Shown here: in pieces, positions 6,126 to 40,160 of the stretch
Layout of the letters: every line of letters starts with the position of its first letter
Numbering within the stretch: position 1 is the stretch's first letter
Assembly: GCA_015063395.1 (NCBI GenBank)
Contig: SVUF01000004.1
Location: forward strand, 1-41,614
Reading direction: 5' to 3'
From: Oscillospiraceae bacterium
GTDB taxonomy: Bacteria > Bacillota > Clostridia > Oscillospirales > CAG-272
DNA: 41,614 nucleotides
Position numbers and translations under genes: made by a program
The notes under the pieces: generated by a model
Seen by the model: the letters and a program-made list of their open reading frames with translations, nothing else
Told to the model about the DNA's origin: nothing
Database searches by the model: none

Positions 6126-7094
6126 TCAATGCTTTTTAAATTCTTCCAAAAACCATATGTTTTTCTTGTCCACAGAAAAGCTCTTTCCCGTAAGATATTC
6201 CAAAATTCCGCTGTTTTCCTTAAAGCTGAAGGTCAAATGGTAGGAATACAGAGCTTGGAACTTATATCCCCTTTTTTTGTCATCACGGTTGATCCCATAT
6301 TTGCCGTCACCAAGAAGGGGATGACCGATTGATGAAAAATGAGCTCTGATCTGGTGGGTACGTCCCGTTACAAGCTCCACCTCGCAAAGTGACAAGCCGT
6401 CCTTTTCATCAATCACCTTATATTTTGTAATGATCTCCTTGGCATCCCGAATATTTGGCTTTTTTTCAAATACCTTCACTGTATTTGTGCGGGAATCCTT
6501 CACAAGCCAACCCCTGAGAGTTGCGGATTTTTTTTCAAAAATACCGTGGGCGGCGCAAAGATATTTTTTTGTGATCTCGTTGTTTTTGATCTTTTCGTTG
6601 ATGATCCTCAGTGTCTCGGCATTTTTTGCGGCAATTACAATTCCCCCTGTGTTTCTGTCGATCCTGTTGCAAAGAGCGGGAGCAAAGGTATTTTCTGCCG
6701 CGGGATCCCACTGACCGTTTTTGTAAAGATATGCCTTGATGTGATCAATGAGGGTATCCGTCTCCTGCTCGTCATCGCTGTGAACGATCATTCCCGAACG
6801 CTTTTCGGCAAGAAGAATATTTTCGTCCTCATAAACAATGTCAAGCCTTGGCGTCAGCTTCATGAAAGCATATTCCGCCGCTTTTTCATCAAAAAACTCC
6901 TCGGGTATGAAAAGCCTTATGACATCACCCTCCGAAAGCATGGTGTTGACCTCAGCCCTTTTGCCGTTGACCTTGATCTTCTTTTGCCTGATGTATCTGT
7001 ACATAAGCGGCATGGGCATTGTCTTGAATTTTTTTGAAATAAACTTGTCAAGACGCTGTCCTGAATCGTTTTTATTAATTGTCAGCTCCCTCAT
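6126..7094 (-). CDS. RluA-family RNA pseudouridine synthase
   Basis: This 322-residue protein has an S4 RNA-binding domain at the N-terminus (about residues 1-62, 'GQRLDKFI' and 'KVNGKRAEVNT') and the pseudouridine synthase domain after it. The catalytic motif is NRIDRNTGG with D146, a variant of the usual HRLDxxTSG. The motif 'VTGRTHQIRAHFSSIGHPLLGDGKYG' region is also present near residues 240-270. It converts uridine to pseudouridine in 23S rRNA or tRNA; the exact site cannot be told. The gene heads the four-gene minus-strand cluster and has a GGAGG ribosome site. Confidence 0.9.
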   Translation of the reverse strand: MRELTINKNDSGQRLDKFISKKFKTMPMPLMYRYIRQKKIKVNGKRAEVNTMLSEGDVIRLFIPEEFFDEKAAEYAFMKLTPRLDIVYEDENILLAEKRSGMIVHSDDEQETDTLIDHIKAYLYKNGQWDPAAENTFAPALCNRIDRNTGGIVIAAKNAETLRIINEKIKNNEITKKYLCAAHGIFEKKSATLRGWLVKDSRTNTVKVFEKKPNIRDAKEIITKYKVIDEKDGLSLCEVELVTGRTHQIRAHFSSIGHPLLGDGKYGINRDDKKRGYKFQALYSYHLTFSFKENSGILEYLTGKSFSVDKKNIWFLEEFKKH

Positions 7095-7285
7095 TTTTCC
7101 TCCGATGGACCAAAAATGGCATGACGCCGTTAAGATCCTTGGTATATCTTTAAATTTTATCTTTTTCTATTGTGAAAAGCAGGTTTCCATGTGTACATTT
7201 TATCACAAATATTTCGGAAATACAAGGGATTTGTTATATCAAAACACAAAAATGCAAATTGATTTATTTTTTTGTCGAATTACTG

Positions 7286-7313
7286 TTGATTTTTTTTATT
7301 TTTATGGTAGAAT
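7286..7313 (+). promoter_or_regulatory. Candidate promoter for PRPP synthetase
   Basis: TTGATT (7286-7291) and TAGAAT (7308-7313) are separated by 16 bases, 45 bases before the start codon, within a T-rich stretch. It matches the consensus at nine of twelve bases, so this is a moderate call. Confidence 0.45.
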
Positions 7314-7357
7314 TATAGATAGAAAATACTATAACACTATATTCGGAGGACAAAACA

Positions 7358-8476
7358 ATGGCGGAATTTTTCGGAGATCTCAGTATTTTTGGCATGAAAG
7401 GCAGCGAGGCATTTACAGAGGTTGTTGATAACTACATCAAAACATCAAGAGGCAGTGACAAGAGCTACATCATCAACGCAAGCTGCGAACGCTTCGGCAG
7501 CGGCGAAGGTAAGGGACTGATCAAGGAATCCCTCAGAGGACACGACCTTTTCATTATTGCCGATGTATTCAACCACGGCGCAACCTACAAGATGTATGGC
7601 AAGGAATACCCAATGAGCCCCGACGATCACTTCTGTGACATCAAGAGAATCATCGGAGCAGTTGGAGGAAAAGCAAGAAGAATTTCTGTCATTATGCCCA
7701 TGCTCTATGAGGGCAGACAGCACAAGCGTTCCACAAGAGAATCCCTTGACTGTGCGCAGGCACTCCAGGAGCTTGTTGCAATGGGTGTTACCAACATCAT
7801 CACCTTTGACGCACACGACGCAAGAGTTCAGAACGCAATCCCGCTTCACGGCTTTGACAACGCTCAGCCCACATACCAGATGATCAAGACATTCATTAAC
7901 ACAGTACCGGATGTTACACTCAACTCCGACAATGTGGCAATCGTTTCCCCCGATGAAGGCGGTATGTCCCGTTGTATGTATTATTCATCAGTTCTTAAGC
8001 TTGATCTCGGCATGTTCTATAAGCGCCGCGACTACTCAAGAATCGTAAACGGAACAAACCCCATTGTTGAGCATAGATATCTCGGTAACTCCGTTGAGGG
8101 CAAGGACGTAATCATCGTTGACGATATGATCTCCTCAGGCGGATCAATGATCGACGTTGCCCAGAAACTCAAGGCTATGGGCGCAAAGAGAGTATTTGCA
8201 TTTGCAACCTTCGGTCTTTTCTGTAACGGACTTGAAATTTTTGATAAGGCTTATGCTGAAGGAACAATTTCCAAGATCTTCACAACAAACCTTACATACC
8301 GTACACCCGAGGTTCTTGCAAGCCCCTGGTATCAGGAGGTTGACCTTCGCAAGTATGTTGCCCTGCTCATCGACCAGATCAACCGCGACGGCACCATCAG
8401 CACACTTCTTGATCCCAAGGACAAGATCTACGCTTACATCGACAAGGCAGTTGCAGAGGGCAAAATCAAGATTTAA
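7358..8476 (+). CDS. prs: Ribose-phosphate pyrophosphokinase (PRPP synthetase), divergent long form
   Basis: The product (372 residues) makes phosphoribosyl pyrophosphate from ribose-5-phosphate and ATP for nucleotide, His and Trp synthesis. Family motifs seen are the flexible-loop KRRDYSRI near residue 225, TFDAHD near 148, and the PRPP-binding loop VIIVDDMISSGGSM near 250. It is longer than the usual roughly 315 residues, with insertions in the N-terminal half and a C-terminal extension. The usual DxxDTGGT loop reads DDMISSGGS, so the second acidic residue is Ser. This fits a clade I recall from clostridia, still annotated as PRPP synthetase. The start has GGAGG 8 bases upstream, and the gene stands alone with its own terminator at 8506-8549. 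Confidence 0.87.
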   Translation: MAEFFGDLSIFGMKGSEAFTEVVDNYIKTSRGSDKSYIINASCERFGSGEGKGLIKESLRGHDLFIIADVFNHGATYKMYGKEYPMSPDDHFCDIKRIIGAVGGKARRISVIMPMLYEGRQHKRSTRESLDCAQALQELVAMGVTNIITFDAHDARVQNAIPLHGFDNAQPTYQMIKTFINTVPDVTLNSDNVAIVSPDEGGMSRCMYYSSVLKLDLGMFYKRRDYSRIVNGTNPIVEHRYLGNSVEGKDVIIVDDMISSGGSMIDVAQKLKAMGAKRVFAFATFGLFCNGLEIFDKAYAEGTISKIFTTNLTYRTPEVLASPWYQEVDLRKYVALLIDQINRDGTISTLLDPKDKIYAYIDKAVAEGKIKI

Positions 8477-8505
8477 TATCATAGCCCCAAAGACATCTTA
8501 AAAAT

Positions 8506-8549
8506 ACAACAGAGCAAGAGTAAAAGGATATGATTCCTTTCTCTGTTGT
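8506..8549 (+). terminator. Hairpin terminator after PRPP synthetase
   Basis: ACAACAGAG pairs with CTCTGTTGT, and an inner stem AAAGGA/TCCTTT is also present. A short T-containing tail (TCTT) follows. It lies 30 bases after the stop codon. Confidence 0.6.
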
Positions 8550-8570
8550 TCTTAACGGAGAAATTACGGG

Positions 8571-8640
8571 CACATAAACTTCGGCAGAGAACTTGTTTTC
8601 TCTGCCGATTTGTGTTATAATGAAACTAACGAAAAGCCTC
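8571..8640. repeat. 72-bp dispersed repeat with terminator-like hairpin, copy 2
   Basis: This segment is nearly identical to 83-154, including the hairpin CGGCAGAGAA/TTCTCTGCCG. Here TTGTTT (8593-8598) and TATAAT (8616-8621) are separated by 17 bases, so the repeat also carries a promoter-like pair pointing to the orphan gene at 8895. Whether that promoter works cannot be told. Confidence 0.75.
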
Positions 8641-8772
8641 CCTCCGAGAGGGAGGTGGCACGGCGTAGCCGTGACGGAAGGAGCTTGCGTGACTTTAGAG
8701 TTGTAGTATCTTCCTTGTTACGCACTCTCCCTCAGTCAGCTTCGCTGACAGCTCCCTCCCGGAGGGAGCCTT
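8637..8772. repeat. Multi-hairpin palindromic repeat element
   Basis: The stretch is built from perfect hairpins with 3-nt loops: CCTCCCTC-CGA-GAGGGAGG (8637-8655), CACGGC-GTA-GCCGTG (about 8658-8672), GTCAGC-TTC-GCTGAC (8735-8749) and CTCCCTC-CCG-GAGGGAG (about 8752-8768). The outer arms are complementary to each other. It fills the gap upstream of the orphan gene. I recall this type of repeat as widespread in gut Firmicutes. No gene is supported inside it. Confidence 0.75.
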
Positions 8773-8894
8773 TGGGTGCGCGCAACCTTAGGGGGATGGG
8801 CTTTGCCTGATGCCTTTGTAATACAAAGGAGAAACTTGCGATAAACAGAACGATAAATATGAATTTGTCTAACTGGTTTTTGGAGGAAACACCA

Positions 8895-9296
8895 ATGAAA
8901 TATCAGCTTCATGATTATGAGATAGATTCCTTTACTCTTGAGAAAGATTCGATTATTCTTTCGTTTCCCAATGGCTTTTATGTCGAGGATGATAACGGCA
9001 ACGAAATAAAGCCGTTAAGGCATAAACTTGTATTTACTGTCGACCGAACCTGCTGCCCTAATGAACCGTTAGAATCTTTTGTATCTATTAGGCGAATCAA
9101 TCATCGTTATACTGGCTGGAGAGATATTTCTTTTAAGCAATTTATTTCTCTTTTCAAAAAAGGAAATATGGTTATACATGATGAATACGACAGCAAGCTA
9201 ACAAACTGGAAAATGATCCAGCTTAATACAAGCACGAGCCGGTCAAATATTGAACTGTTCATAACGGACATTCTTGATATAGCCTGTTACGAATGA
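8895..9296 (+). CDS. Hypothetical protein, orphan inside repeat patch
   Basis: I do not recognise this 133-residue protein. It is soluble, with no signal peptide or membrane segment, and appears to be a mixed alpha/beta fold with alternating hydrophobic strands near the N-terminus (YEIDSFTLEKDSIILSF) and a DDNGNEI turn. It contains a few cysteines (about residues 54, 55 and 131), which are not in a metal-binding pattern. The ATG at 8895 has GGAGG 8 bases upstream, so it is preferred over an in-frame ATG at 8859. The gene is bracketed by repeats on both sides and by a 16-bp hairpin terminator, which suggests an accessory, possibly acquired gene. It resembles the size and style of orphan proteins used as immunity partners, but nothing in the sequence proves this. 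Confidence 0.7.
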   Translation: MKYQLHDYEIDSFTLEKDSIILSFPNGFYVEDDNGNEIKPLRHKLVFTVDRTCCPNEPLESFVSIRRINHRYTGWRDISFKQFISLFKKGNMVIHDEYDSKLTNWKMIQLNTSTSRSNIELFITDILDIACYE

Positions 9297-9338
9297 TATA
9301 GACGATGGGAGTCATAATCAAATACCAAATCATCGAAT

Positions 9339-9379
9339 AATTAACGCCGACAGACCCTGAAAATCTGTCGGCGTTAATT
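9339..9379 (+). terminator. Perfect 16-bp hairpin after the orphan gene
   Basis: AATTAACGCCGACAGA pairs over its whole length with TCTGTCGGCGTTAATT around a 9-base loop, followed by ATTTGG. It is a likely intrinsic terminator for the orphan gene, although the T-tract is short. Confidence 0.65.
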
Positions 9380-9411
9380 ATTTGGTTACTGCGGAGCAAA
9401 TTTCCCTATCC

Positions 9412-9459
9412 GTAGGGGCGTTCTGTGAACGCCCGCGGGCGAACACAGTTCGCCCCTAC
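9412..9459. repeat. 48-bp double-hairpin palindromic repeat, copy 2
   Basis: This copy has the same ends (GTAGGGG/CCCCTAC), length and double-hairpin plan as 29-76. Its stems are GGGCGTTC-TGT-GAACGCCC and GGGCGAAC-ACA-GTTCGCCC. The stem bases differ between copies while pairing is kept. Confidence 0.8.
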
Positions 9460-9540
9460 CGTGTGTCAGGTCAATGTATTATGATTTCTCCGCTAAGAAC
9501 ATCACCCATTCTATTCTTGCTCTTTTTTCTTTGGTTTTAA

Positions 9541-10980
9541 TTACGGCGCTTGAAGTATCACAGTAAAGCGGCACCATTTTCCTTCTTCGCTGTCAACGCT
9601 GATTTTTCCGTTCATGGCTTCAACGATGGTTCTTGAAATGTAAAGTCCAAGACCAACGCCCGATTTGTCAAGCCCGCGGCTCTTGTCAGCTTTATAAAAT
9701 CTGTCAAATACATATTTCAGCTCGTCCTTGGGAATTCCCTTACCCTCGTTGTAGACCTCGATCTTCACCTTTTTGGATTCGGGCTGTGTAATCTTAACTC
9801 TTAAAACACCCTTGTCATACGAAAACTTTATGGCGTTGTCAACAAGGTTATATAGCACTTGATGTATTGAATCGGAGTCGGCAAGAACGGGAATCTTTTC
9901 GTTTTCAAGGTCTATGTCCACCTCAAGCTCCTTTGCCTCGATCCTTGACTCATTGGACAGCATTACCTCAACTGCCTTTTGGCATATATCAAATTCTCTG
10001 ATATTGAATTTACGGTCACCTGCCTGTATTCTTGATATATCAAGCAGTGTTCCCACAAGTCTTGAAAGACGTCTGACCTCCGTTGCAACGATGCCGAGAT
10101 AATAGTCCTGCTTTTCCTTCGGGATCGCACCGTCAAGTATACCGTCTATATATCCCGAAATTATGGTCATGGGCGTTCTCAGATCATGGGAAACATTGGC
10201 AAGAAATCCGCTTCTCAGCTTTTCAAGCTCGGCGAGAGACTCCGCCATGCTGTTCATGGTGGCGGCAAGCTCTGCGATCTCGTCCTTTCCAACGACCTGA
10301 ACCCTTACGTCAAAATTACCTGCCGCAAAGCTTTTTGCCGCTTTGTCGATGTTTTTGAGGGGCACAACGATCCTTTCCGAAATGAAATAGCAGCCGATCA
10401 TTCCCGCAATCAGCACAAGAGTGGCAATTCGGGACATGGTACCGATCATTCCCGCAACAAAGCTTGACATTACATTCATGGGAGTTGCCGCAACAACGAT
10501 TCCGTGGTTATCCCCTGTGGAAAGCTCAATTGCCTTGAGACAGTATTCCTCGTCAAAAAGCCCTTCAACTTCTCCGACAAATGTATATGCCTGATCCGAT
10601 GTCAGAACATTGTTCATTATAAATCCGGGAACGGATTTGTTTCTCAGCTTGGATCCGCTGCTGCATACACTTATATCCCCATTGGGATTGGCTATAAATA
10701 TTACCGTATTGGTGCAATCCGCAATGCCCGATATCTGCACCTCAAGGGATTCCCTTTCGTCGTTTATAAAGGAAAAATAGTCCCTTACGACACCGTCACC
10801 GATATACACCGCATATGCTCTGTCCACCATTACCTTCACGGATTCTGCCGCGTGAGTTACACTGTTGGTTCTTTCATTTGTGGAAACCGTTCCAACAAAT
10901 ATAAAGAACAAAACCGAAAAGCTCACCGCAAAGATCAGCAGGAAGCATACCATATATTTTACAAATACGCTTTTGAACAC
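9541..10980 (-). CDS. Sensor histidine kinase (two-component system 2)
   Basis: Counting from the GTG at 10980, the product has 479 residues. A membrane segment at about 8-30 is followed by an external sensor region of about 140 residues, a second membrane segment (about 175-202), a HAMP linker (FAAGNFDVRV), the H-box NVSHDLRTP with the phospho-acceptor His at about residue 265, and N, G1, F and G2 boxes (NLVDNAIKF, NEGKGI, VFDRFYKAD, GVGLGLYIS). The start was chosen because AGAGG lies 8 bases upstream of it; the in-frame GTG at 10989 overlaps that ribosome site. The matching regulator is upstream at 11298-11990, but a repeat array lies between the two genes. The signal is unknown. Confidence 0.92.
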   Translation of the reverse strand: MFKSVFVKYMVCFLLIFAVSFSVLFFIFVGTVSTNERTNSVTHAAESVKVMVDRAYAVYIGDGVVRDYFSFINDERESLEVQISGIADCTNTVIFIANPNGDISVCSSGSKLRNKSVPGFIMNNVLTSDQAYTFVGEVEGLFDEEYCLKAIELSTGDNHGIVVAATPMNVMSSFVAGMIGTMSRIATLVLIAGMIGCYFISERIVVPLKNIDKAAKSFAAGNFDVRVQVVGKDEIAELAATMNSMAESLAELEKLRSGFLANVSHDLRTPMTIISGYIDGILDGAIPKEKQDYYLGIVATEVRRLSRLVGTLLDISRIQAGDRKFNIREFDICQKAVEVMLSNESRIEAKELEVDIDLENEKIPVLADSDSIHQVLYNLVDNAIKFSYDKGVLRVKITQPESKKVKIEVYNEGKGIPKDELKYVFDRFYKADKSRGLDKSGVGLGLYISRTIVEAMNGKISVDSEEGKWCRFTVILQAP

Positions 10981-17583: not shown

Positions 17584-18744
17584 ATGCAGTACACCATAAT
17601 CGGCGGAATCAAATATAAAAACAAAGCCGCAAAAAAACTGAATATTCCCGCGTTTGAGCCCTCCAAGGCAGAAATATATATATCCGACGCAACCCCCGTT
17701 TGTCAGGTTGGTGACAAGGTATCTAAAGGAGATCTTATTGCCAAGAGCATAAACGGATTTTGCGTATATGCATCGCTCAGCGGTGATATTTCCCGCATTT
17801 CCGAGGATTTCATAACCGTTTGCGGAAAGACGAGCCAAGAAGCAAAGCCAATTGAGGAGTATTCCGGAGGCTTTGACGCAGAAAGCCGTCATGAGCTGAT
17901 TTCATATATGCTCTTGGCAGGTCTGCCCGACAGCACGGAAATACTTTTGAGACAGGAAATGGGAAACACCAGAAGGGTCATAATAAACTGCATGTATGAT
18001 CCCTCAAAGGAACATGCTGAAAAAATTATAAACGGCGCAAAGATCATATTGCTTGCCCTTGGCATCCGCTCGGCAGTCATTACAATTCCAAAATCAAGCA
18101 AGGGTCTTGCAAAAGCAATTGAAAAAACGACCTATGACAGAGAAATGTTTTTGATCGCCATGCTTCCGAAAATTCACCCTCTTGAAGCACCCGAAGCAAT
18201 TTCAAGAGCAGTCTACCCCTATACCCCCTTTTCCGATGTGTATGTTCTCTCGCCCCTGTCTTGCATGGCGGTATATGACGCCTTCAACGAGTCAACTGCA
18301 TATACAGGTCACAGGATAAGAGTACGGTACAAAAAATACTATGAAGACATATTCTGCCCCGCAGGTACAAGCTTTGGCGATTTGAAGAAACACTTTGCCG
18401 AAAATGCTCCTGCAAAAGCATCAAAATGGCAGGTCGTTGTTGGTAATTCGGGCATTGGATTTCCGCAAGAGGACGAAAGGATCATTGGAAGCGATATCGC
18501 CTCGGTAACCTTTAAAAAGGGGTATTTATCCCTTGCCGAGAAGCACAGCTCATGCATCTCCTGCGGAAAATGCCGCAAGGTTTGTCCCGCAGAGCTTTCG
18601 CCGTATATGATAGTCTCAGGTGCCGCAATGGATGGCACCTTCAAATGCATGTCCTGCGGCTGTTGCTCAAATGTCTGCCCTGTGGGAATTCCCCTTGCAG
18701 AGAAAATCGACAATTATCTTAGGGGGTGCAATAATGATAAATAA
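17584..18744 (+). CDS. RnfC-like Fe-S protein lacking flavin/NADH motifs
   Basis: This 386-residue protein follows the RnfC order. The N-terminus is the barrel-sandwich 'CQVGDKVSKGDLIAKSINGFCVYASLSGDISRI'. A Rossmann-like middle and a C-terminus with two 4Fe-4S motifs follow: C324-C327-C330-C334 and C355-C358-C361-C365. RnfC normally carries NADH and FMN in a loop like GLGGAGFPT and a following NGAECEP; here those places read AGLPDSTEIL and NCMYDPS, so both are lost. It is shorter than typical RnfC (about 440). I infer an Rnf-related electron carrier with a different donor, or a non-redox role. It overlaps the next gene by 11 bases. Confidence 0.8.
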   Translation: MQYTIIGGIKYKNKAAKKLNIPAFEPSKAEIYISDATPVCQVGDKVSKGDLIAKSINGFCVYASLSGDISRISEDFITVCGKTSQEAKPIEEYSGGFDAESRHELISYMLLAGLPDSTEILLRQEMGNTRRVIINCMYDPSKEHAEKIINGAKIILLALGIRSAVITIPKSSKGLAKAIEKTTYDREMFLIAMLPKIHPLEAPEAISRAVYPYTPFSDVYVLSPLSCMAVYDAFNESTAYTGHRIRVRYKKYYEDIFCPAGTSFGDLKKHFAENAPAKASKWQVVVGNSGIGFPQEDERIIGSDIASVTFKKGYLSLAEKHSSCISCGKCRKVCPAELSPYMIVSGAAMDGTFKCMSCGCCSNVCPVGIPLAEKIDNYLRGCNNDK

Positions 18745-19627
18745 ACTGCTTTCAATTTTGCCCCGTTATCCTGCCCGCAGTCTTGGATATACAATCGATT
18801 ACCTTATAGCATTTTTACCCGCAATCATCATATCCTGTATTTACCTTACAACCAATATAGCCACGGGGCTGGCAGTGGCACTTCTTGCTTCATTTGTCCT
18901 TGAAGCCTGTCTGTGCATATTCATGAAGAAGGAATTTGACCTGACAATTGCAGTAAGAGTATTGGCTCTCTGCATTTGTATTCCATGCGATACCCCTCTC
19001 GGCTTCTATCTGCTTGGAGGCGCACTCATTTTCGCTTTCAGTAATTTACGCAGATTTACGGATAAATATATAAGCCTTGAGCCTGTTGTTTTCACTGTGA
19101 TCATACTTCTTTTGATGATCCCAAGGGTATATTCCCCAACTCACAGCGTTGTTGAGGGCTTGAAGTTTGGAAGCGTCTCGGTATGGGATCTTCTCATGGG
19201 TTATAAAAGCAGATTTTTCGGTGCAGGAAACTTGTTCGCGCTTTTCTTTGCATATGTTTATCTGTCCTTAAGAAAAAGAATACATTTTATCCATGGCGCG
19301 CTGTTTTATGCAGTGCTTATTGCCGTTCTTGCATTTCTTTATGAGGGCACGGAGCTAAACGCCATATACTATGTCAGCTTCATTGCTCTTGACGCAAATG
19401 TATTCTTCCCATCTCTTTTCCTTTTAGGCTTTGGCACACTTCCCTTTGAAAAGAAGGGGGCATATGTATTCTCGATCCTCGGCGGTGCCGCCCTCGGATT
19501 TGTAACACTAAAGCTTGGGCTTGACTACGGCGCTTATTATGTCCTTGGTCTTATGTCAATTCTTTCCCGTCCCACAGAGCTTCTTGTTTGTAAGCTCAAG
19601 CACAGGAAAAAGGCGGCATCCCTATGA
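18734..19627 (+). CDS. RnfD-like (NqrB/RnfD) membrane protein
   Basis: The 297-residue product has about eight to ten membrane segments and follows the RnfD plan, with the region 'YSPTHSVVEGLKFGSVSVWDLLMG' aligning to the 'SATPLAALK...LFLG' segment in which the Thr holds covalent FMN; the Thr is kept in SPTHS, but the neighbours differ. The usual 'ATDPVTSPVTPKG' segment reads GFGTLPFEKKG. It probably spans the membrane as a partner of the RnfC-like protein. I chose the ATG at 18734 (AGGGGG 7 bases upstream); a longer in-frame version overlaps RnfC heavily. Overlap with the next gene is ATGA. Confidence 0.75.
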   Translation: MINKLLSILPRYPARSLGYTIDYLIAFLPAIIISCIYLTTNIATGLAVALLASFVLEACLCIFMKKEFDLTIAVRVLALCICIPCDTPLGFYLLGGALIFAFSNLRRFTDKYISLEPVVFTVIILLLMIPRVYSPTHSVVEGLKFGSVSVWDLLMGYKSRFFGAGNLFALFFAYVYLSLRKRIHFIHGALFYAVLIAVLAFLYEGTELNAIYYVSFIALDANVFFPSLFLLGFGTLPFEKKGAYVFSILGGAALGFVTLKLGLDYGAYYVLGLMSILSRPTELLVCKLKHRKKAASL

Positions 19628-20091
19628 TAAAGCTTATACTCACCAAATTTAGCGGGACTCCAAAGGACATCAGCAACAGGGCATACAGCATTGTCAGATC
19701 CATGGCACTTGACAAAAATGCAATAATACTTAAAACAAGCATGGGTAAGCCGTACCTCGAAGGCGGAGAATTTCACTTTTCCATATCCCATACCGAGTCC
19801 ATGATCGCCATAGCAATCGCCCCGTTCAATGTGGGAATTGACATTGAAAAGGCGGACAGACAGATATCCGAAGGCGTGGCAAAAAGATTTCTTGATGGCA
19901 ATAAAAGCATTTCCGAATGGGTACATTTTGAGTCATTTTCCAAGCTCCATGGGGACGGAATTACAGTTGGCTACAGTAAAATGAAATCAACTCCCCACAA
20001 TTTCTGTGAGCTTGAGCTCTTTGGGCATAAGCTATGTGTTTGCTCTTTCGGTGACTTGACCTTGCAGATGATACAGTGTCCGAAGCTTTAG
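19624..20091 (+). CDS. 4'-phosphopantetheinyl transferase-like protein, degenerate
   Basis: The 155-residue protein has the Sfp/AcpT signature 'GKPYLEGGEFHFSISHTESM' and the metal-binding GIDIE (D73, E75). The third motif is EWVHFESFSKLHG, where the usual WxxKE-S/A-xxK has Phe (F102) in place of the first Lys. It is shorter than Sfp (about 225) and AcpT. A functional PPTase would attach phosphopantetheine to a carrier protein; with the missing Lys, activity is uncertain. Overlap by ATGA with the RnfD-like gene indicates translational coupling in a three-gene operon. No carrier protein lies in this window. Confidence 0.65.
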   Translation: MIKLILTKFSGTPKDISNRAYSIVRSMALDKNAIILKTSMGKPYLEGGEFHFSISHTESMIAIAIAPFNVGIDIEKADRQISEGVAKRFLDGNKSISEWVHFESFSKLHGDGITVGYSKMKSTPHNFCELELFGHKLCVCSFGDLTLQMIQCPKL

Positions 20092-20125
20092 AAATTCATT
20101 TATTATACAATAATTTTTACACAAC

Positions 20126-20173
20126 AAAAAGGCTGTAAACAACTCATTTTCCGAGTTATTTACAGCCTTTTTT
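20126..20173. terminator. Bidirectional terminator between the Rnf-like operon and the murA operon
   Basis: GGCTGTAAACAACTC pairs with GAGTTATTTACAGCC, flanked by AAAAA and TTTTTT. It can terminate the plus-strand Rnf-like operon and the minus-strand murA cluster. Confidence 0.85.
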
Positions 20174-20202
20174 AAGGTTTATAAATTATAAATGCTTTTC
20201 CA

Positions 20203-20577
20203 TTATTCAAAGAATACGTCGTTGTAGCTGTTCCAAGGGATCTGTACGTTTGTACCCCATGAACTTGAACCGTATATTGACACATCGCTGTCATTGGTTG
20301 CGCATTTCTTCTTGGAATAATCGATCATGGCACGGGTGCCCATGCACTCGATAAAGAGCTGTCCGTATCTTTCTCTGATCTTTATGGGCATGTTTCTCAA
20401 GTTCTTTTCCGCACCGAGAAGAATACAGCAATAAATTTCATCATGTCTGTAGTTAGTGCAAAAAACAGAAACAACTCCGTCCTTGCCATCAACAACAAGT
20501 CCGCAATAATCTGTTTCATACATGAAAACCTTTTTAAATAAGCTTAATTTACATTCCGCACGTTCGTCAAGATACAT
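20203..20577 (-). CDS. Hypothetical protein
   Basis: I do not recognise this protein. It has 124 residues from the ATG at 20577, which has AGAGGTG 7 bases upstream; an in-frame GTG three codons earlier overlaps that site. It has no membrane segment or signal peptide, contains seven cysteines (for example TDYCGLVV, VFCTNY, YCCILL, FIECMG, KKCATN), and is strand-rich. It follows murA by 15-24 bases and is probably co-transcribed, with a terminator at 20126. Its cysteine content is unusual for a soluble protein and might indicate metal or redox sensing, but no standard motif is visible. Confidence 0.65.
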   Translation of the reverse strand: MYLDERAECKLSLFKKVFMYETDYCGLVVDGKDGVVSVFCTNYRHDEIYCCILLGAEKNLRNMPIKIRERYGQLFIECMGTRAMIDYSKKKCATNDSDVSIYGSSSWGTNVQIPWNSYNDVFFE

Positions 20578-32584: not shown

Positions 32585-35215
32585 TTATTTTACGTCTCTT
32601 GCAATAATTTCGGGAAGACGTGCTTCTGCCTCGGGATACTTGGAAATATCCTTAATACCCGCTGTAGCGCTGTCAGGACGTCCGCCGCCGCCACCACCGC
32701 AAATGGAAGCCATTTCCTTGACGATCTTTCCTGCGTTCATTCCCTTTGCAACTGCTTCCTTACCGCAAGCGCAAACAAGGTTTGCCTTGCCGTCGTTTAC
32801 AATTGCAAATACTGTTACACTCAAGGGATTCTCGGACTTGATGTCGTCGCAAAGTCCTCTTGCGGCATCAAGAGTGATACCGTCAACCTTGGAAACGATT
32901 ACGGAAACACCGGATATTTCAACTGCGCTTGACTTGATGGACTCAAGCTTTGCATTGGCGATCTTTGCTTCAAGTGACTCGATTTCCGAATTTGCACTCT
33001 TAAGCTCTGACTGAAGCTGTGATGCCTTCTTGGCGATGTCAAGGGGATTTGCAACCTTCATTTCCTTGGCGGTCTTTTCAATAAGGCTTTGCTTTTCAGC
33101 AAGAAGCTCAAGAATTCCAAGACCTGTAGCCGCCTCAATTCTACGAACACCTGCCGCAACCGATGACTCGGAAACGATCTTGAAAAGTCCAACACATGAT
33201 GTATTCTTTACATGTGTACCGCCGCAAAGCTCTGTGGAGAAGTCTCCCATCTTGACCATACGTACATACTTTCCGTATTTCTCTCCGAAAAGAGCCATTG
33301 CTCCTTCCTTACGGGCTGTCTCAATGTCTGTAACAACTGTATTTACATCTATTGCCTCAAAAATTGCGGCATTTACTATATCCTCAACCGCCTTGATCTC
33401 CTCTGGAGTCAGGGCAGCATAGTGACTGAAGTCAAATCTCGCTCTGTTTGCGTCAACATATGATCCCGCCTGCTCAACGTGGTTGCCGAGAACCTTACGG
33501 AGAGCCGCCTGAAGCATATGACATGAGGAGTGGTTTCTTGCAATTGCCATACGGCGAAGTGTATCGATGCTTGCAGTAAGCTCCTCGCCAACAAAGATCT
33601 CTCCCTCATCAACTGTACAGAAGTGGAGGAACACTCCATCCTGCTTTTTAACATCATTTACAGTGATCTTAACACCCTCAGCAGTAATTACACCGGAATC
33701 TCCAACCTGTCCGCCGCTTTCTGCATAAAAGGGAGTTTTGTCAAGAATCAGTGTAAAGTCACCTTCACTGATCTTTTCCTGATTGATCTCATCTGCAATT
33801 ATGCCAAGAACCTTGACCTTTGATGATGTCTCTGTATATCCTGTAAACTCTGTTTCGGCAAAATCAGAAAGAAGATTTTTGGAATTCTCGCTCCAACCGC
33901 TGATGTTTGCTCTTGCAGCTCTTGCTCTTGTTCTCTGCTCTGCCATAAGAGCTGTAAATCCGTCCTCATCAAGACCGAGTCCTGCTTCCTTGGCGATCTC
34001 GCGGGTAATGTCCACAGGGAATCCAAATGTGTCGTAAAGCTTGAAGATATCCGCACCGTCAATGACAGTCTTTCCATCTGCCTGACATTTTTCGCAAATT
34101 CCCGAAAGGATTGCAAGTCCTGCGTCGATGGTTGTTGCAAATCTTTCTTCTTCAATTCTTACAACCTTCTTGATGTAATCAAGCTTTTCTGTAAGCTCGG
34201 GGTATTCTGTATAATTCTCCTTGGCAACAACTTCAACGATATCGCTGAGGAATGTTCCCTTGATGCCAAGCATCTTGCCGTGACGTGCGGCACGTCTGAG
34301 AAGTCTGCGAAGAACATATCCTCTTCCCTCATTGGAAGGAACAACACCGTCACAAACCATAAATGTTGTGGAACGAATGTGGTCTGTAACTACACGGAGA
34401 GAAATATCTGTTTTTTCGCCTTCACCATAGCTTACTCCTGCCTTTGCGCTGATGGAAGCCATGATATTTCGTACAGTATCAACTTCAAAAAGGTTGTTTA
34501 CTCCCTGCATGATACAAGCAAGTCTTTCAAGTCCCATTCCTGTATCAATGTTGGGATTTGCAAGACGGGTATATGTGCCCTTTCCGTCAGAATCAAACTG
34601 TGTGAATACAAGATTCCAGAATTCCATGAATCTGTCGCAGTCACAGCCGGGCTTACAGTCGGGCTTTCCGCAACCAAATTTTTCACCTCTGTCAAAGTGG
34701 ATCTCAGAACAAGGTCCGCAGGGTCCGGAGCCATGCTCCCAGAAGTTATCCTCCTTGCCAAGTCTTACGATCTTTTCGGGGTCAACTCCGATCTTGTTTG
34801 CCCAGATATCATAAGCCTCATCATCATCAAGATAGATCGTTACCCAAAGCTTATCCTTGGGAAGCTTTATAACCTCTGTGATGAACTCCCACGCCCATGT
34901 GATCGCCTCTTTTTTGAAATAGTCTCCAAAAGAGAAGTTTCCAAGCATTTCAAAGTAGGTACCGTGACGGGCAGTAATTCCAACTCTGTCAATATCGGGT
35001 GTTCTGATACATTTCTGGCAAGTTGTCATTCTACGTCTTGGCGGCTCAATTTCCCCTGTAAAATACTTTTTGAGGGGAGCCATTCCGGCATTTATAAGAA
35101 GCAAGGATTTGTCTCCCGAGGGCACAAGTGAAAAGCTCTTGTGACGCAGGTGATCTTTGCTTTCAAAGAAAGAGAGATACTGCTCTCTTAAATCATTAAC
35201 GCCTGTCCATTCCAT
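32585..35215 (-). CDS. alaS: Alanyl-tRNA synthetase
   Basis: This 876-residue protein has the expected layout: a class II catalytic domain (motifs such as GMAPLKKYF and FWEHGSGPCGPCSEIH), tRNA-binding region, editing domain (HSSCHMLQAAL and CGGTHVKNTS, which bind zinc), and a C-Ala/DHHA1 domain with ICGGGGGGRPDSATAG near the end. A perfect promoter (35267-35295) lies upstream; no T-box is visible in the 111-base gap. Length is normal. Confidence 0.98.
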   Translation of the reverse strand: MEWTGVNDLREQYLSFFESKDHLRHKSFSLVPSGDKSLLLINAGMAPLKKYFTGEIEPPRRRMTTCQKCIRTPDIDRVGITARHGTYFEMLGNFSFGDYFKKEAITWAWEFITEVIKLPKDKLWVTIYLDDDEAYDIWANKIGVDPEKIVRLGKEDNFWEHGSGPCGPCSEIHFDRGEKFGCGKPDCKPGCDCDRFMEFWNLVFTQFDSDGKGTYTRLANPNIDTGMGLERLACIMQGVNNLFEVDTVRNIMASISAKAGVSYGEGEKTDISLRVVTDHIRSTTFMVCDGVVPSNEGRGYVLRRLLRRAARHGKMLGIKGTFLSDIVEVVAKENYTEYPELTEKLDYIKKVVRIEEERFATTIDAGLAILSGICEKCQADGKTVIDGADIFKLYDTFGFPVDITREIAKEAGLGLDEDGFTALMAEQRTRARAARANISGWSENSKNLLSDFAETEFTGYTETSSKVKVLGIIADEINQEKISEGDFTLILDKTPFYAESGGQVGDSGVITAEGVKITVNDVKKQDGVFLHFCTVDEGEIFVGEELTASIDTLRRMAIARNHSSCHMLQAALRKVLGNHVEQAGSYVDANRARFDFSHYAALTPEEIKAVEDIVNAAIFEAIDVNTVVTDIETARKEGAMALFGEKYGKYVRMVKMGDFSTELCGGTHVKNTSCVGLFKIVSESSVAAGVRRIEAATGLGILELLAEKQSLIEKTAKEMKVANPLDIAKKASQLQSELKSANSEIESLEAKIANAKLESIKSSAVEISGVSVIVSKVDGITLDAARGLCDDIKSENPLSVTVFAIVNDGKANLVCACGKEAVAKGMNAGKIVKEMASICGGGGGGRPDSATAGIKDISKYPEAEARLPEIIARDVK

Positions 35216-35326: not shown

Positions 35327-36658
35327 TTAAATATCATCAAAATCCTCAAATTCAACATCTCCGTTGTCAGCCTCGCTTGAAGCCAAGTTGACCTTTTCTC
35401 CGCTTTCTCCAACAACGTCCTTAAAGCTTGTTTCAGGATTTTGAAGCATAACGTCAAGAAGGGATATATACTCTCGAATTATCTCTCGAGGTGTGATCAA
35501 TGTATCCGCTCCGGCACGGTCCGAGCATATTTTTACAAATCGTATCATTTCCTCGGAGGTGATCCTTGCTTCCTCCTTATAATACTGACTGTGAAGAATT
35601 GTAATACGCTTCACAAGTGCCAAAAGCTCGTTGTCAGACATACGGCGAAGTCGGATTATGGGTCCCATAAAGTTTTTAAGCTCCGTTTTTACAGCATATC
35701 CACGGTCATTGAGACGGGAGCGCAAAGCCTCGTAGCTATAAACACCCCTTCGTGTATCCTCAAGGAACTGTGGTGTTCCCCCCATAAATATGGCAAGTCC
35801 CGGGGCTCTGCCTCCAAGGGAATCATTAAACATGGAAAGGAGCTTTTCGTAGTTCTTCTCCCTTGAAATACGGTTGGATATTTTATAAAGGTTTACACAT
35901 TCATCAATGAATACACAGAATCCGCTGTAACCGATCTTTTTGAAAAATGCGCACCAAAGCTTAATGTAGTCATACCAATTCTCATCGTCAATTATATCGG
36001 ATACATTGAGCATCATTTTTGCCTGTGTTTTGGTGGTGAACTCACCGCGGAACCACCTCATGCACGCGCTTTTTTTGTTTTCGTCACCGTTAACAGTGGC
36101 AGAATAATAATTTGAAAGCACCAGTGCAAAATCAAATCCGCCAACATGATTTTCAAGCTCACGGCAAAAGCTGAAGACCTCATTTCTCACTGCCTTTTCA
36201 AAAACGGGGCTTTCGGGATCAAGTCCCTCTGCTGCAAGCTCCATTGATATTGATGAAAGCCACTTTGAAATGATCTGCCCCAAGGCACCGCCCTCGGGAG
36301 ATGATTTCACTGAAAGATTGCGGATAAGCTCACGGTAGGTTGCAATTCCCGCTCCGTTTGTTCCGCAAAGCTTACGTTCAGGGGACAGATCCGCATCTGC
36401 GCAGACAAAGCCATGCTCCATGGCATATCCCCTTAAAAGCGTCAACAAAAAGCTTTTTCCGCTTCCGTATTTACCTATAATAAATCTCATGCATCCGCCA
36501 TCGTCCTTGACAAAATCAAGATCCTTCACAAGGGAGGCAATTTCCTCGGTTCTGCCAATGGCAATATATGACGCTCCGACTCTCGGAACAACTCCTGCGC
36601 TGACTGATGAAAGTATCAGCCCCAAAATTCTTCTCGGTATCTTTATTTCTTCAGCCAT
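35327..36658 (-). CDS. BREX-type (DUF2791) P-loop ATPase
   Basis: This 443-residue protein starts MAEEIKIPRRILGLILSSV, then has Walker A GKYGSGKS (residues 62-69) and Walker B FCVFIDE (about 247-253), with 'MGGTPQFLEDTRRGVYSYEALRSRL' further on, as in DUF2791/BrxC-BrxD-type ATPases. Its C-terminus is acidic. The family is linked with BREX defence and with TerB-type loci. It overlaps the TerB-N/TerB-C gene by 16 bases and surely acts with it. No helicase, methylase or nuclease gene lies next to it. Confidence 0.8.
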   Translation of the reverse strand: MAEEIKIPRRILGLILSSVSAGVVPRVGASYIAIGRTEEIASLVKDLDFVKDDGGCMRFIIGKYGSGKSFLLTLLRGYAMEHGFVCADADLSPERKLCGTNGAGIATYRELIRNLSVKSSPEGGALGQIISKWLSSISMELAAEGLDPESPVFEKAVRNEVFSFCRELENHVGGFDFALVLSNYYSATVNGDENKKSACMRWFRGEFTTKTQAKMMLNVSDIIDDENWYDYIKLWCAFFKKIGYSGFCVFIDECVNLYKISNRISREKNYEKLLSMFNDSLGGRAPGLAIFMGGTPQFLEDTRRGVYSYEALRSRLNDRGYAVKTELKNFMGPIIRLRRMSDNELLALVKRITILHSQYYKEEARITSEEMIRFVKICSDRAGADTLITPREIIREYISLLDVMLQNPETSFKDVVGESGEKVNLASSEADNGDVEFEDFDDI

Positions 36659-38175
36659 TGGCTAACCTCCTGGGCGTATTCCTCTATGACCTTATAGTTT
36701 TCTCCGTCGGATTCCAAAACTATGTCGCCAATTGTAGTGAAGGCAAAATAGTTTATCTCCTCAATTACCGCTTCGGGCATCAATCGCTTTATTGTACAAT
36801 AAGTGCTGAATTTAAGATAATCCTCCTCAAATATAAAGCCAAGAGGAAATCTGACGCTGTCGGGAACCTTCAATCTGTTCTCGTCCTCTTCTTTAGCCTT
36901 TTTCTCCGAGGCTTTTTCCTTTTTCTTTTGAGCTTTGGGCTTCTCTGCAGCTTGCTTCATTTCCTTATTGTCCTCTGCTGATTCTCCCTCTATAAGCTCT
37001 GCCGTAGCTCTTGATTCAAGCTCGATCTTCTTTGCCTCCTCCTCGGAAAACCCCTTGGTAGCAGGCTCATATCTTTTCTCGCCAACCTCACGGAGCTTTG
37101 AAGTTGGATTCTTAAAGCCGTTTATTTCGCCCATGAAATATTCGTCAATACGGTCCTTAATTTCCGGGGCAAGATTGGTCTTTATATATTTGGATCTTAA
37201 TCCAAGACCCGATTTTACAAGGCTTTCCGCATATTTAACCGCTTCCGTGGCATCAACGGTATCGATCTCCGCCCTTTCAAGCTTGTAATAGCTTACGGTC
37301 ATACGTCTTTTGTTTTCATACGGACACAGAGCGCCCATGTAGCTGTCTCTTATAACGCTGACAACGGGCGGCTCGCCAAACTCTCGGTTGGAAAAGCACT
37401 TCTTCAAAGCCATATTTATGTGCCTTCTAAAGATCTCTCGATTTTCTTCGTTGACACAGCTTGCGTTGTTGAAGTCATATTCAGAGCTTGTTCTCATAAG
37501 CTCTGCTTCTGCATTTTTTATATCGTATTTGTTAAGATAAAATTCGGGAAATGTGGTAATTTTTAGGATCTCGGGTAAAAAGCTCTTGATTGTATCAACG
37601 GGATAATCAACTCCGTGGATCAGACAGTAATCGGGAATCCATTCACTGAAATATTTGTCAAGCTGGCTGTACTGCTTTCTGTATCTCGCCCATAAATAAC
37701 AGAGATACTTTATTCCAAGCTTTGGCGAAAGCACCTCTTCCGGCAAGTTGAGGACCTCATATACAAACAGCATGATATAACTGAAATCAGTCTTTATACA
37801 CTGTCCGTTTCTGAATTTATATCTCCAATAGAGATAATACTTCATTTGTCTTTGATTGAGCTGTGTATACTGGGGCGTGAAAGAAAAGAAGGGAATGTAT
37901 TCTGCCTCCTCAACATTTTCGTTGAAAAAATTCACAGCGTACCACACAAAGCCGTCATAAAAATCAAATTCTGCTCCCCAAGCACGAATCTCAAGACCGC
38001 AGATCAGTCCCGTAGGATATTCATGCTTTTCCAAAAGCGCACCAAGGGGCGGCGCCTTTACAGCCTCAGACCATTGCTTCCTGTTGATATTTTCAGTTTT
38101 CGGTTTATGCTCTATCTTTGGCGGCATTATGCTTCCAAGATCGCCAAGGATATCAAGAATCTTATCTTTTTTCAT
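36643..38175 (-). CDS. TerB-N/TerB-C domain protein
   Basis: The 510-residue protein fits the TerB-N pattern at about residues 55-250 (IPFFSFTPQYTQLNQRQMKY region, with 'YYLYWRYKFRNGQ' and 'SYIMLFVYEVLNL'). After a middle domain, a Lys/Glu-rich linker (about 400-435) leads to a TerB-C-like domain (about 440-505, 'FPLGFIFEEDYLKFSTYC' and 'AVIEEINYFAFTTIGD'). TerB-N and TerB-C are linked in published comparative work with AAA+ ATPases and helicases in predicted stress or phage-defence systems. It begins the two-gene operon with a perfect promoter. Confidence 0.75.
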   Translation of the reverse strand: MKKDKILDILGDLGSIMPPKIEHKPKTENINRKQWSEAVKAPPLGALLEKHEYPTGLICGLEIRAWGAEFDFYDGFVWYAVNFFNENVEEAEYIPFFSFTPQYTQLNQRQMKYYLYWRYKFRNGQCIKTDFSYIMLFVYEVLNLPEEVLSPKLGIKYLCYLWARYRKQYSQLDKYFSEWIPDYCLIHGVDYPVDTIKSFLPEILKITTFPEFYLNKYDIKNAEAELMRTSSEYDFNNASCVNEENREIFRRHINMALKKCFSNREFGEPPVVSVIRDSYMGALCPYENKRRMTVSYYKLERAEIDTVDATEAVKYAESLVKSGLGLRSKYIKTNLAPEIKDRIDEYFMGEINGFKNPTSKLREVGEKRYEPATKGFSEEEAKKIELESRATAELIEGESAEDNKEMKQAAEKPKAQKKKEKASEKKAKEEDENRLKVPDSVRFPLGFIFEEDYLKFSTYCTIKRLMPEAVIEEINYFAFTTIGDIVLESDGENYKVIEEYAQEVSQWLKK

Positions 38176-38211
38176 TACAAAACACCTATAAATTACCTAA
38201 ATCAATAAATC

Positions 38212-38240
38212 ATTATACCATACATTATTATTTTTGTCAA
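38212..38240 (-). promoter_or_regulatory. Perfect sigma-A promoter for the TerB-N/DUF2791 operon
   Basis: On the minus strand TTGACA (38240-38235) and TATAAT (38217-38212) are separated by 17 bases, about 37 bases before the start codon. An inverted repeat TTTACT/AGTAAA with a 2-base gap (about 38243-38256) sits just upstream and could be an operator. Confidence 0.8.
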
Positions 38241-38292: not shown

Positions 38293-38422
38293 AACATCAT
38301 CCGCTTCATAAAAGGATGATGCTGTCTTTGTCTTGTCTTTGTCTTGTCTTTGTCTTTGTCTTTTGGGATAAATTCGCATATGCCGCCGCATTCCCACCGC
38401 AGATGCGAAATATATGCGAATT
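38293..38422. repeat. Repeat-rich gap: short-tandem array and hairpins
   Basis: A GTCTTT/TCTTG-type simple repeat fills about 38324-38361. Near it are GCATCATCC-type pairing (CATCATCC and GGATGATG at about 38297-38322) and an 11-bp inverted repeat AATTCGCATAT/ATATGCGAATT (38371-38381 and 38412-38422) with an inner CGCAT/ATGCG. No gene is supported. It lies upstream of the TerB-N operon promoter. Confidence 0.6.
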
Positions 38423-38525: not shown

Positions 38526-38530
38526 AAAAT

Positions 38531-38565
38531 GAGCTGTAAAAACTCCAACCAAGTCTTTACAGCTC
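38531..38565 (-). terminator. Terminator-like hairpin after the RsuA-type gene
   Basis: GAGCTGTAAA pairs with TTTACAGCTC around a partly paired loop, followed on the minus strand by ATTTTC. It lies just after the minus-strand pseudouridine synthase gene. Confidence 0.55.
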
Positions 38566-38578
38566 AAAATTAAAAATT

Positions 38579-39293: not shown

Positions 39294-39908
39294 TCATAAA
39301 TGAAGTATCGGCGATACCTTTTTATACAGTAAAAATGAAATCACGGAGCACAAAACTCCCTTGACAAGATTAAACGGTATGACACATATCAGAACAAATT
39401 TAAAAAGTGAATTTACCGCAGGGTTTACCTGTGCGCCTGTCATAATTATATTGTCAATTCCTCCGAACATCGAAGCGTAAGCAGGTACAACTATAAAATA
39501 ATTTATACATGCTCCCACTAAAGCGAGGCTTACACAGCCAACTAAGCATGATATCAGTGCGCCCTTCTTTGTTTTTATGAATTTATAAACGATGGAAGCG
39601 CTGACAGTAAAGGAAGCACCGATGAGGAAATTGGCAAGCTCACCAACTCCGCCTGTAACACTGCCGTCAATAAGCAGATTTATTAGATTTTTTATAAATT
39701 CCATAATAAGAGCTGCTGTTGGACCCATGGAAAAACCGCCGATCAATATGATGACCTCTGAAAAATCAAGCTTATAAAATCCCGGTGCTAAAAACGGTAT
39801 TGGAAATTCCAGAAGCATAATTACAGAAGAAAGAGCGGATAAAATTGCAATTTTCACAAGATTGTAAAGTGCCCTTCTTCTTTTTGTATTATTAGATTTT
39901 ATACTCAT
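39294..39908 (-). CDS. ribU: ECF transporter substrate-binding subunit RibU (riboflavin)
   Basis: This 204-residue protein has five to six membrane segments and RibU features (FYKLDFSEVIILIGGFSMGPTAALIMEFIKNLI region, TGGVGELANFLIG). It binds riboflavin in the membrane for ECF-type uptake and uses shared energising subunits encoded elsewhere. An FMN riboswitch upstream supports the substrate. A ribosome site (AAGGAG) precedes the ATG. Confidence 0.94.
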   Translation of the reverse strand: MSIKSNNTKRRRALYNLVKIAILSALSSVIMLLEFPIPFLAPGFYKLDFSEVIILIGGFSMGPTAALIMEFIKNLINLLIDGSVTGGVGELANFLIGASFTVSASIVYKFIKTKKGALISCLVGCVSLALVGACINYFIVVPAYASMFGGIDNIIMTGAQVNPAVNSLFKFVLICVIPFNLVKGVLCSVISFLLYKKVSPILHL

Positions 39909-40010: not shown

Positions 40011-40026
40011 ATATATGATCCGCGAC

Positions 40027-40134
40027 ATCTTTTCTCATCCGGACTATACCGTCGGTACAGGAATTTCACCTGTTCGGCACTTTCGTGTTAGCGGACTTTA
40101 CCGCCGGTGTGGATTTTCACCAACCCCCAAAGAT
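40027..40134 (-). ncRNA. FMN riboswitch (RFN element)
   Basis: On the minus strand the sequence has the RFN hallmarks in order: ATCTTT closing stem, GGGGGTTGGTGAAAATCC, CACCGGCGGTA, AGTCCGC, a TGCCGAACAGGTGAAATTCC arm and CCGACGGTATAGTCCGGATG. The outer stem pairs ATCTTT with AAAGAT. It senses FMN and controls ribU and the downstream pseudouridine synthase gene. The sequence directly upstream is the tuf terminator; I saw no clear separate promoter. Confidence 0.95.
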
Positions 40135-40160
40135 ATTTAGATTTCTTAACTATTTAAAAC

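What the first reader, a model, noticed from the sequence alone, without database searches (positions are those of the whole stretch)
35327..38240. Two-gene TerB-N/DUF2791 module: reduced or novel putative defence system
The TerB-N/TerB-C protein and BREX-type ATPase are fused by a 16-base overlap under a perfect promoter, between alaS and a repeat-rich gap. Related loci in other bacteria usually carry a helicase beside them. Here only two genes remain, so this may be a minimal version, a partial system, or one whose helicase is encoded elsewhere.
Basis: partly seen in the sequence, partly recalled or inferred. Interest (0 to 1): 0.65.

Follow-up and report, generated by a model that had tools for sequence, protein, structure and literature searches.

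The report
Shango phage-defence genes, helicase encoded elsewhere
The two genes are two of the three parts of a known bacterial anti-phage system called Shango, and the third part, a helicase, turned up at a separate place in the same genome, so the system is complete but split in two, an arrangement that recurs in related bacteria.

Summary
The ATPase (35327-36658, -) scores 534 bits to the Shango SngB model (BrxD 161) and the TerB-N/TerB-C protein (36643-38175, -) 117 bits to SngA. The helicase is not missing: one SngC homologue (758 aa, 776 bits; nearest solved structure Lhr helicase) lies inside another contig of the same genome, after cysS and a lipoprotein gene. In 245 genomes of the order SngB and SngC occur together in 52, SngB alone in 2 (fragmented assemblies), SngC alone in 1. 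SngABC is together in about 40 of the 52; at least 10, in four families, carry sngC away from sngAB. The pair sits beside alaS in four genera and one further MAG. SngB and SngC trees agree with each other far better than with alaS, so the separated genes look like one co-inherited unit. Best reading: a split-locus Shango acting in trans. Phage defence by this copy is inferred from homology; nothing here tests it. What is new is the recurrent split, which gene-adjacency searches would probably miss. The patchy distribution argues against a housekeeping role but does not exclude a domesticated one.

The parts
36643..38175 (-). sngA: TerB_N/TerB_C protein, 510 aa, first gene of the pair
   Evidence: Pfam TerB_N 1e-13, TerB_C 3.3e-7; PADLOC SngA 117.5 bits, residues 85-508 on model 90-527 of 528, the only PADLOC hit; orthologues in all 28 relatives with SngB; only TerB_N protein of the genome
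35327..36658 (-). sngB: BrxC/BrxD-family ATPase, 443 aa; Walker A GKYGSGKS at residues 62-69, Walker B VFIDE from residue 249
   Evidence: PADLOC SngB 534 bits against BrxD 161 bits; Pfam BrxC_BrxD 1e-150; NCBIfam BrxD 162 bits, below its 350-bit cut-off; motifs conserved
36643..36658 (-). 16-base overlap of sngA and sngB reading frames (translational coupling inferred)
   Evidence: ORF coordinates
38212..38240 (-). consensus sigma-A-type promoter TTGACA-17-TATAAT with extended TG, upstream of sngA
   Evidence: conserved in relatives
38530..38566 (-). intrinsic-terminator-like hairpin after the upstream pseudouridine synthase gene, separating it from sngAB
   Evidence: 16 pairs, T-rich tail; consensus match only
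32585..35215 (-). alaS, next gene downstream with its own consensus promoter (35295-35267, -); flank, not part of the system, but conserved neighbour of split sngAB in four genera and of sngAB in MAG locus L112

Best explanation
The pair is the sngA-sngB half of a complete Shango anti-phage system whose third component, the Lhr/BrxHI-like helicase SngC, is encoded at a second chromosomal locus and acts in trans. Shown: family identity of all three proteins, intact genes and motifs, single copies in the genome, near-strict co-occurrence, co-inheritance of SngB and SngC, and recurrence of the split. Inferred: sngAB is expressed from its own strong promoter and translated in a coupled way; sngC is expressed with the cysE-like/cysS/lipoprotein gene run. 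SngB, an AAA+-type ATPase related to BrxD, probably assembles on DNA with SngA as adaptor or sensor and loads or licenses SngC, which then unwinds or tracks along invading DNA and blocks phage replication. Expression in trans would suffice because the proteins assemble after translation.
For: SngB 534 bits and SngA 117 bits; single SngC of 776 bits on contig C90, positions 18204-20477 of 23832, away from the contig ends. SngC model resembles mycobacterial Lhr (Foldseek E 1.5e-27). Co-occurrence of B and C: 52 both, 2 B only, 1 C only, 190 neither. Robust splits in large contigs: G009 (AB at 32 kb of a 364-kb contig, C at 184 kb of a 276-kb contig) and G012. SngB and SngC tree distances: Mantel r 0.89 over 22 genomes, partial r 0.90 given alaS, against r 0.36 and 0.16 of each with alaS; 28 of 53 bipartitions shared, including G000+G007, G011+G012, G004+G025. 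A third dispersal pattern, sngA alone and sngBC together, in G016. Shango of PA14 (TerB-like, ATPase, DEAD/DEAH helicase) gives 10-100-fold protection (PMC10250203). BrxD is classed as an ORC/Cdc6 AAA+ ATPase and proposed to load BrxHI (PMC12839542).
Against: No experiment: neither phage defence by this copy nor function in trans is shown. Within the seven split genomes of the window's own family the B-C distance correlation is weaker (r 0.45, p 0.005). The window's SngA lacks the FW of the N-terminal 'DxFWDIDxLLP' motif that most close relatives keep, and its SngC sits on a long branch (0.97 against 0.43 in its sister), so some loss or change of function is possible. The loci lie among housekeeping genes, not in an evident defence island (one search gave only scattered single hits).
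Confidence: 0.8

Rival explanations
1. The trio has been recruited to a chromosomal role such as DNA repair, replication restart or stress response in this lineage; separation into housekeeping neighbourhoods and stable synteny with alaS reflect that domestication.
For: Conserved sngAB-alaS order in four genera and one further MAG; neighbours are core genes such as cysS and alaS; codon usage and GC like the host's; Lhr is a DNA-repair type helicase (own knowledge).
Against: Patchy presence (24 of 36 in the family, 4 of 23 in other families of the order) and SngB/SngC histories that do not follow alaS closely fit a mobile defence system; SngB-like genes are on 681 plasmid records, mostly conjugative (this count may include true BREX BrxD).
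Confidence: 0.13
2. A reduced two-gene system that works without a helicase.
For: Only two genes are present at the locus.
Against: SngC is in the same genome; SngB without SngC was seen in none of 59 relatives and in only 2 of 245 genomes of the order, both poor assemblies.
Confidence: 0.03
3. A decaying remnant: genes separated by rearrangement and no longer functional.
For: N-terminal motif of SngA changed; SngC on a long branch.
Against: All three frames intact; ATPase and helicase motifs intact; strong promoter kept; the split state persists across a whole genus, e.g. three genomes of genus g81 in family f16.
Confidence: 0.04
4. A fragment of a Type-2 BREX system (BrxD plus BrxHI).
For: SngB belongs to the Pfam BrxC_BrxD family; SngC scores 412 bits to BrxHI|BrxHII.
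Against: SngB and SngC models score far higher (534 and 776 bits); BrxD is under NCBIfam's cut-off; TerB protein present; no PglZ in the genome.
Confidence: 0.01

Closest known systems
Shango (SngABC), Millman et al. 2022 and Johnson et al. 2023 (PMC10250203)
   Same: All three proteins, single copies, sngA before sngB, overlapping or tightly packed frames; helicase of the SngC type.
   Different: Canonical Shango is one three-gene operon, often in defence hotspots or on plasmids; here sngC is at a separate locus and both loci lie among core genes.
BREX Type 2 (Pgl) BrxD-BrxHI dyad (PMC12839542)
   Same: Homologous ATPase and helicase; the same loader-plus-helicase logic may apply.
   Different: There the two are a tightly linked dyad and come with PglZ, PglX, PglW and BrxC; here they are unlinked, PglZ is absent and a TerB_N/TerB_C protein is present.
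Lhr-type SF2 helicase (Mycobacterium smegmatis Lhr, 5v9x)
   Same: SngC model matches over most of its length (E 1.5e-27, TM 0.66).
   Different: SngC is not a stand-alone repair helicase by distribution: it goes with SngA and SngB.

Membership tests
Shango | SngA, TerB_N/TerB_C-type protein | tested here: met
   PADLOC SngA 117.5 bits, E 3e-34; Pfam TerB_N and TerB_C above cut-off
Shango | SngB ATPase | tested here: met
   PADLOC SngB 534 bits, E 6e-161
Shango | SngC DEAD/DEAH helicase in the same genome | tested here: met
   776 bits, E 1e-233, G000:C90:18204-20477
Shango | Three genes adjacent in one operon (usual arrangement and, as I recall, required by detection tools) | tested here: not met
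   sngAB on C51, sngC on C90; not adjacent. The same split is found in at least nine further genomes of the order set. Judged an arrangement and not a component requirement, hence 'variant'.
Shango | Recognisable central TerB domain PF05099 in SngA | tested here: inconclusive
   No PF05099 match in any of 22 SngA relatives; predicted structure has no confident PDB match; the PADLOC SngA model nevertheless aligns across that stretch
Shango | Anti-phage activity | not testable with these tools
   needs a plaque assay
BREX Type 2 | BrxD above curated cut-off | tested here: not met
   162 bits against a 350-bit cut-off
BREX Type 2 | PglZ in the genome | tested here: not met
   no match in G000, 91% complete

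The most novel reading that the evidence does not exclude
In this order of Clostridia Shango has been broken up repeatedly (sngAB/sngC, and once sngA/sngBC) and kept as a dispersed, chromosomally settled system, possibly with a second cellular role in DNA maintenance, so that the three proteins are a true trans-acting complex and not an operon-bound module.
Probability: 0.25. Interest if true: 0.6.

Novelty: new variant of a known kind. Interest (0 to 1): 0.42.

Why it matters
Defence systems are usually found and counted by gene adjacency. Here a three-part system is retained with its parts unlinked in at least 10 of about 50 carriers of the order, so adjacency-based surveys would probably score it as absent or partial. 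The split also suggests that SngC functions as a separable subunit, and gives paired phylogenies for mapping the SngB-SngC interface, useful because I found no published mechanism for Shango.

Tried and rejected
Two-gene minimal system: rejected by SngC in the genome and by co-occurrence. Assembly break: rejected, both loci are internal and bounded by intact genes. BREX fragment: rejected. Solved structures for SngA and SngB by sequence: none. Foldseek of the SngA model (pLDDT 82): no match below E 1; weak LysR-type winged-helix hits (prob up to 0.6) for a small part, not used as evidence. Phage records: no SngB relative. PADLOC scan of 40 neighbouring window and C90 proteins: four single hits (mad3, PDC-M43B, pVip, AriA), not followed up and not read as a defence island. 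A first alaS tree had two wrong-frame sequences and was redone. The split looked confined to this order (10 split of 50 resolvable inside, 0 of 16 outside), but that contrast is not significant (Fisher p 0.10). The pattern tests for the SngA N-terminal motif and for SngC motifs across all loci undercount (longest-frame starts, narrow patterns) and only the G000 and G007 rows are used.

Full report
On the minus strand of the window lie two intact, overlapping genes, 36643-38175 (510 aa) and 35327-36658 (443 aa), sharing 16 bases. A perfect extended promoter stands 36 bases before the first. A hairpin terminator separates the pair from the upstream pseudouridine-synthase gene, and alaS downstream has its own perfect promoter. 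The promoter is a real feature of the family: 10 of 51 sngA loci in relatives have 12/12 and 23 have at least 11/12, whereas sngB and sngC almost never do. A perfect promoter is not special to defence, since alaS has one too.

Identity. Pfam gives TerB_N plus TerB_C for the first protein and BrxC_BrxD for the second. Among defence models the second protein is SngB (534 bits, BrxD 161) and the first is SngA (117 bits, no other hit); NCBIfam's BrxD model stays far under its cut-off. These are two of the three Shango proteins. Shango of Pseudomonas aeruginosa PA14 consists of a TerB-like protein, an ATPase and a DEAD/DEAH helicase and lowers plating 10-100-fold for many phages (PMC10250203).

The helicase. 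A search of the window's own assembly (1.96 Mb, 143 contigs, 91% complete, 0.09% contamination) with the SngC model found one match of 776 bits, E 1e-233, at C90:18222-20471; the full gene is C90:18204-20477. The scan of that 758-aa protein confirms it: SngC 776 bits, BrxHI|BrxHII 412; helicase motifs are intact. The gene starts 14 bases inside the end of a lipoprotein gene, downstream of cysS and a hexapeptide acyltransferase gene, cysE-like. Its predicted structure (pLDDT 74.5) is nearest to Lhr helicase bound to single-stranded DNA. There is one SngB, one SngC and one TerB_N protein in the genome, and no PglZ, so BREX is excluded as far as the assembly goes. GC content and codon usage of all three genes fit the host.

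Distribution. Of 59 relatives, 28 have SngA, SngB and SngC, one has SngC alone, none has SngB alone. In 245 genomes across the order: 52 both, 2 SngB only (a 60%-complete and a 410-contig assembly), 1 SngC only, 190 neither, Fisher p 1e-49 (p ignores relatedness; one very weak SngB match, G136, is not counted). alaS is in 57 of 59, so this is not a housekeeping distribution.

Arrangement. Reading the coordinates together with the fetched loci: among the 52, about 40 have sngB and sngC together, 10 are clearly split (window genome, G009, G040, G063, G082, G090, G105, G119, G130, G193, in four families), and 2 are ambiguous at contig ends. In the window's family G004, G007, G012, G013 and G025 are split as well. 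Splits in long contigs (G009, G012) cannot be assembly breaks. In G016 it is sngA that is apart. In G000, G007, G009 and G013 and in the MAG locus L112 the order is sngA-sngB-alaS, which suggests an old split locus. On the SngB and SngC trees the split state needs seven changes after ambiguous genomes are left out; gain and loss cannot be told apart. Outside the order the genes were together in all 16 resolvable cases, a contrast that is not significant (p 0.10).

Co-inheritance. Distances on the SngB and SngC trees correlate at 0.89 in 22 genomes; controlling for alaS leaves 0.90, while each correlates only weakly with alaS (0.36 and 0.16). Without the three most divergent genomes the B-C correlation is 0.67 and the partial correlation 0.72. 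Split genomes mostly pair with the same sisters on both trees. The distant helicase is thus the cognate partner and not an unrelated helicase. For the seven split genomes of the own family alone the correlation is 0.45 (p 0.005), weaker but present. The trees are quick searches with SH-aLRT support only.

Mechanism (inferred). BrxD, the nearest described relative of SngB, is classed as an ORC/Cdc6-type AAA+ ATPase and was proposed to load BrxHI helicase; the two are described as a tightly linked dyad in Type-2 BREX (PMC12839542). SngC groups with BrxHI, DruE and DpdJ in a potentially defence-specific helicase clade (PMC12278908). I therefore favour SngA as adaptor or sensor, SngB as loader or switch, SngC as the DNA motor that interferes with phage DNA. 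No step of this was tested here.

Verdict. A known system in an uncommon, recurrent arrangement.

Noticed in passing
window 40023-40138 (-): FMN riboswitch (Rfam RF00050, 106 bits) upstream of an ECF-type transporter gene (39294-39908), so that gene is probably a riboflavin transporter.
   Followed up: partly
window 38323-38363: 41-bp TGTCTT-type tandem array between the sngA promoter and the upstream pseudouridine synthase gene; no link to the pair found.
   Followed up: partly
L079 and L080 (genome G016): A different dispersal: sngA alone on one contig, sngB-sngC on another, both well inside long contigs.
   Followed up: partly
L145 (genome G147), 6351-10827: Two SngC-like helicase genes in tandem after sngB, 680 and 596 bits to the window genome's SngC.
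   Followed up: no
L076 (G019) and L133 (G188): SngC homologues in genomes without detected SngB; either losses or incomplete assemblies.
   Followed up: no
L184, Sulfitobacter faviae plasmid: Plasmid-borne TerB/ATPase/helicase trio followed directly by a PD-(D/E)XK nuclease and a UvrD-type helicase gene.
   Followed up: no
SngA alignment A1, N-terminus (window 38116-38175): Short conserved N-terminal motif DxFWDIDxLLPxK in most close SngA relatives, altered in the window's SngA (DILGDLGSIMPPK); a possible partner-binding peptide.
   Followed up: no
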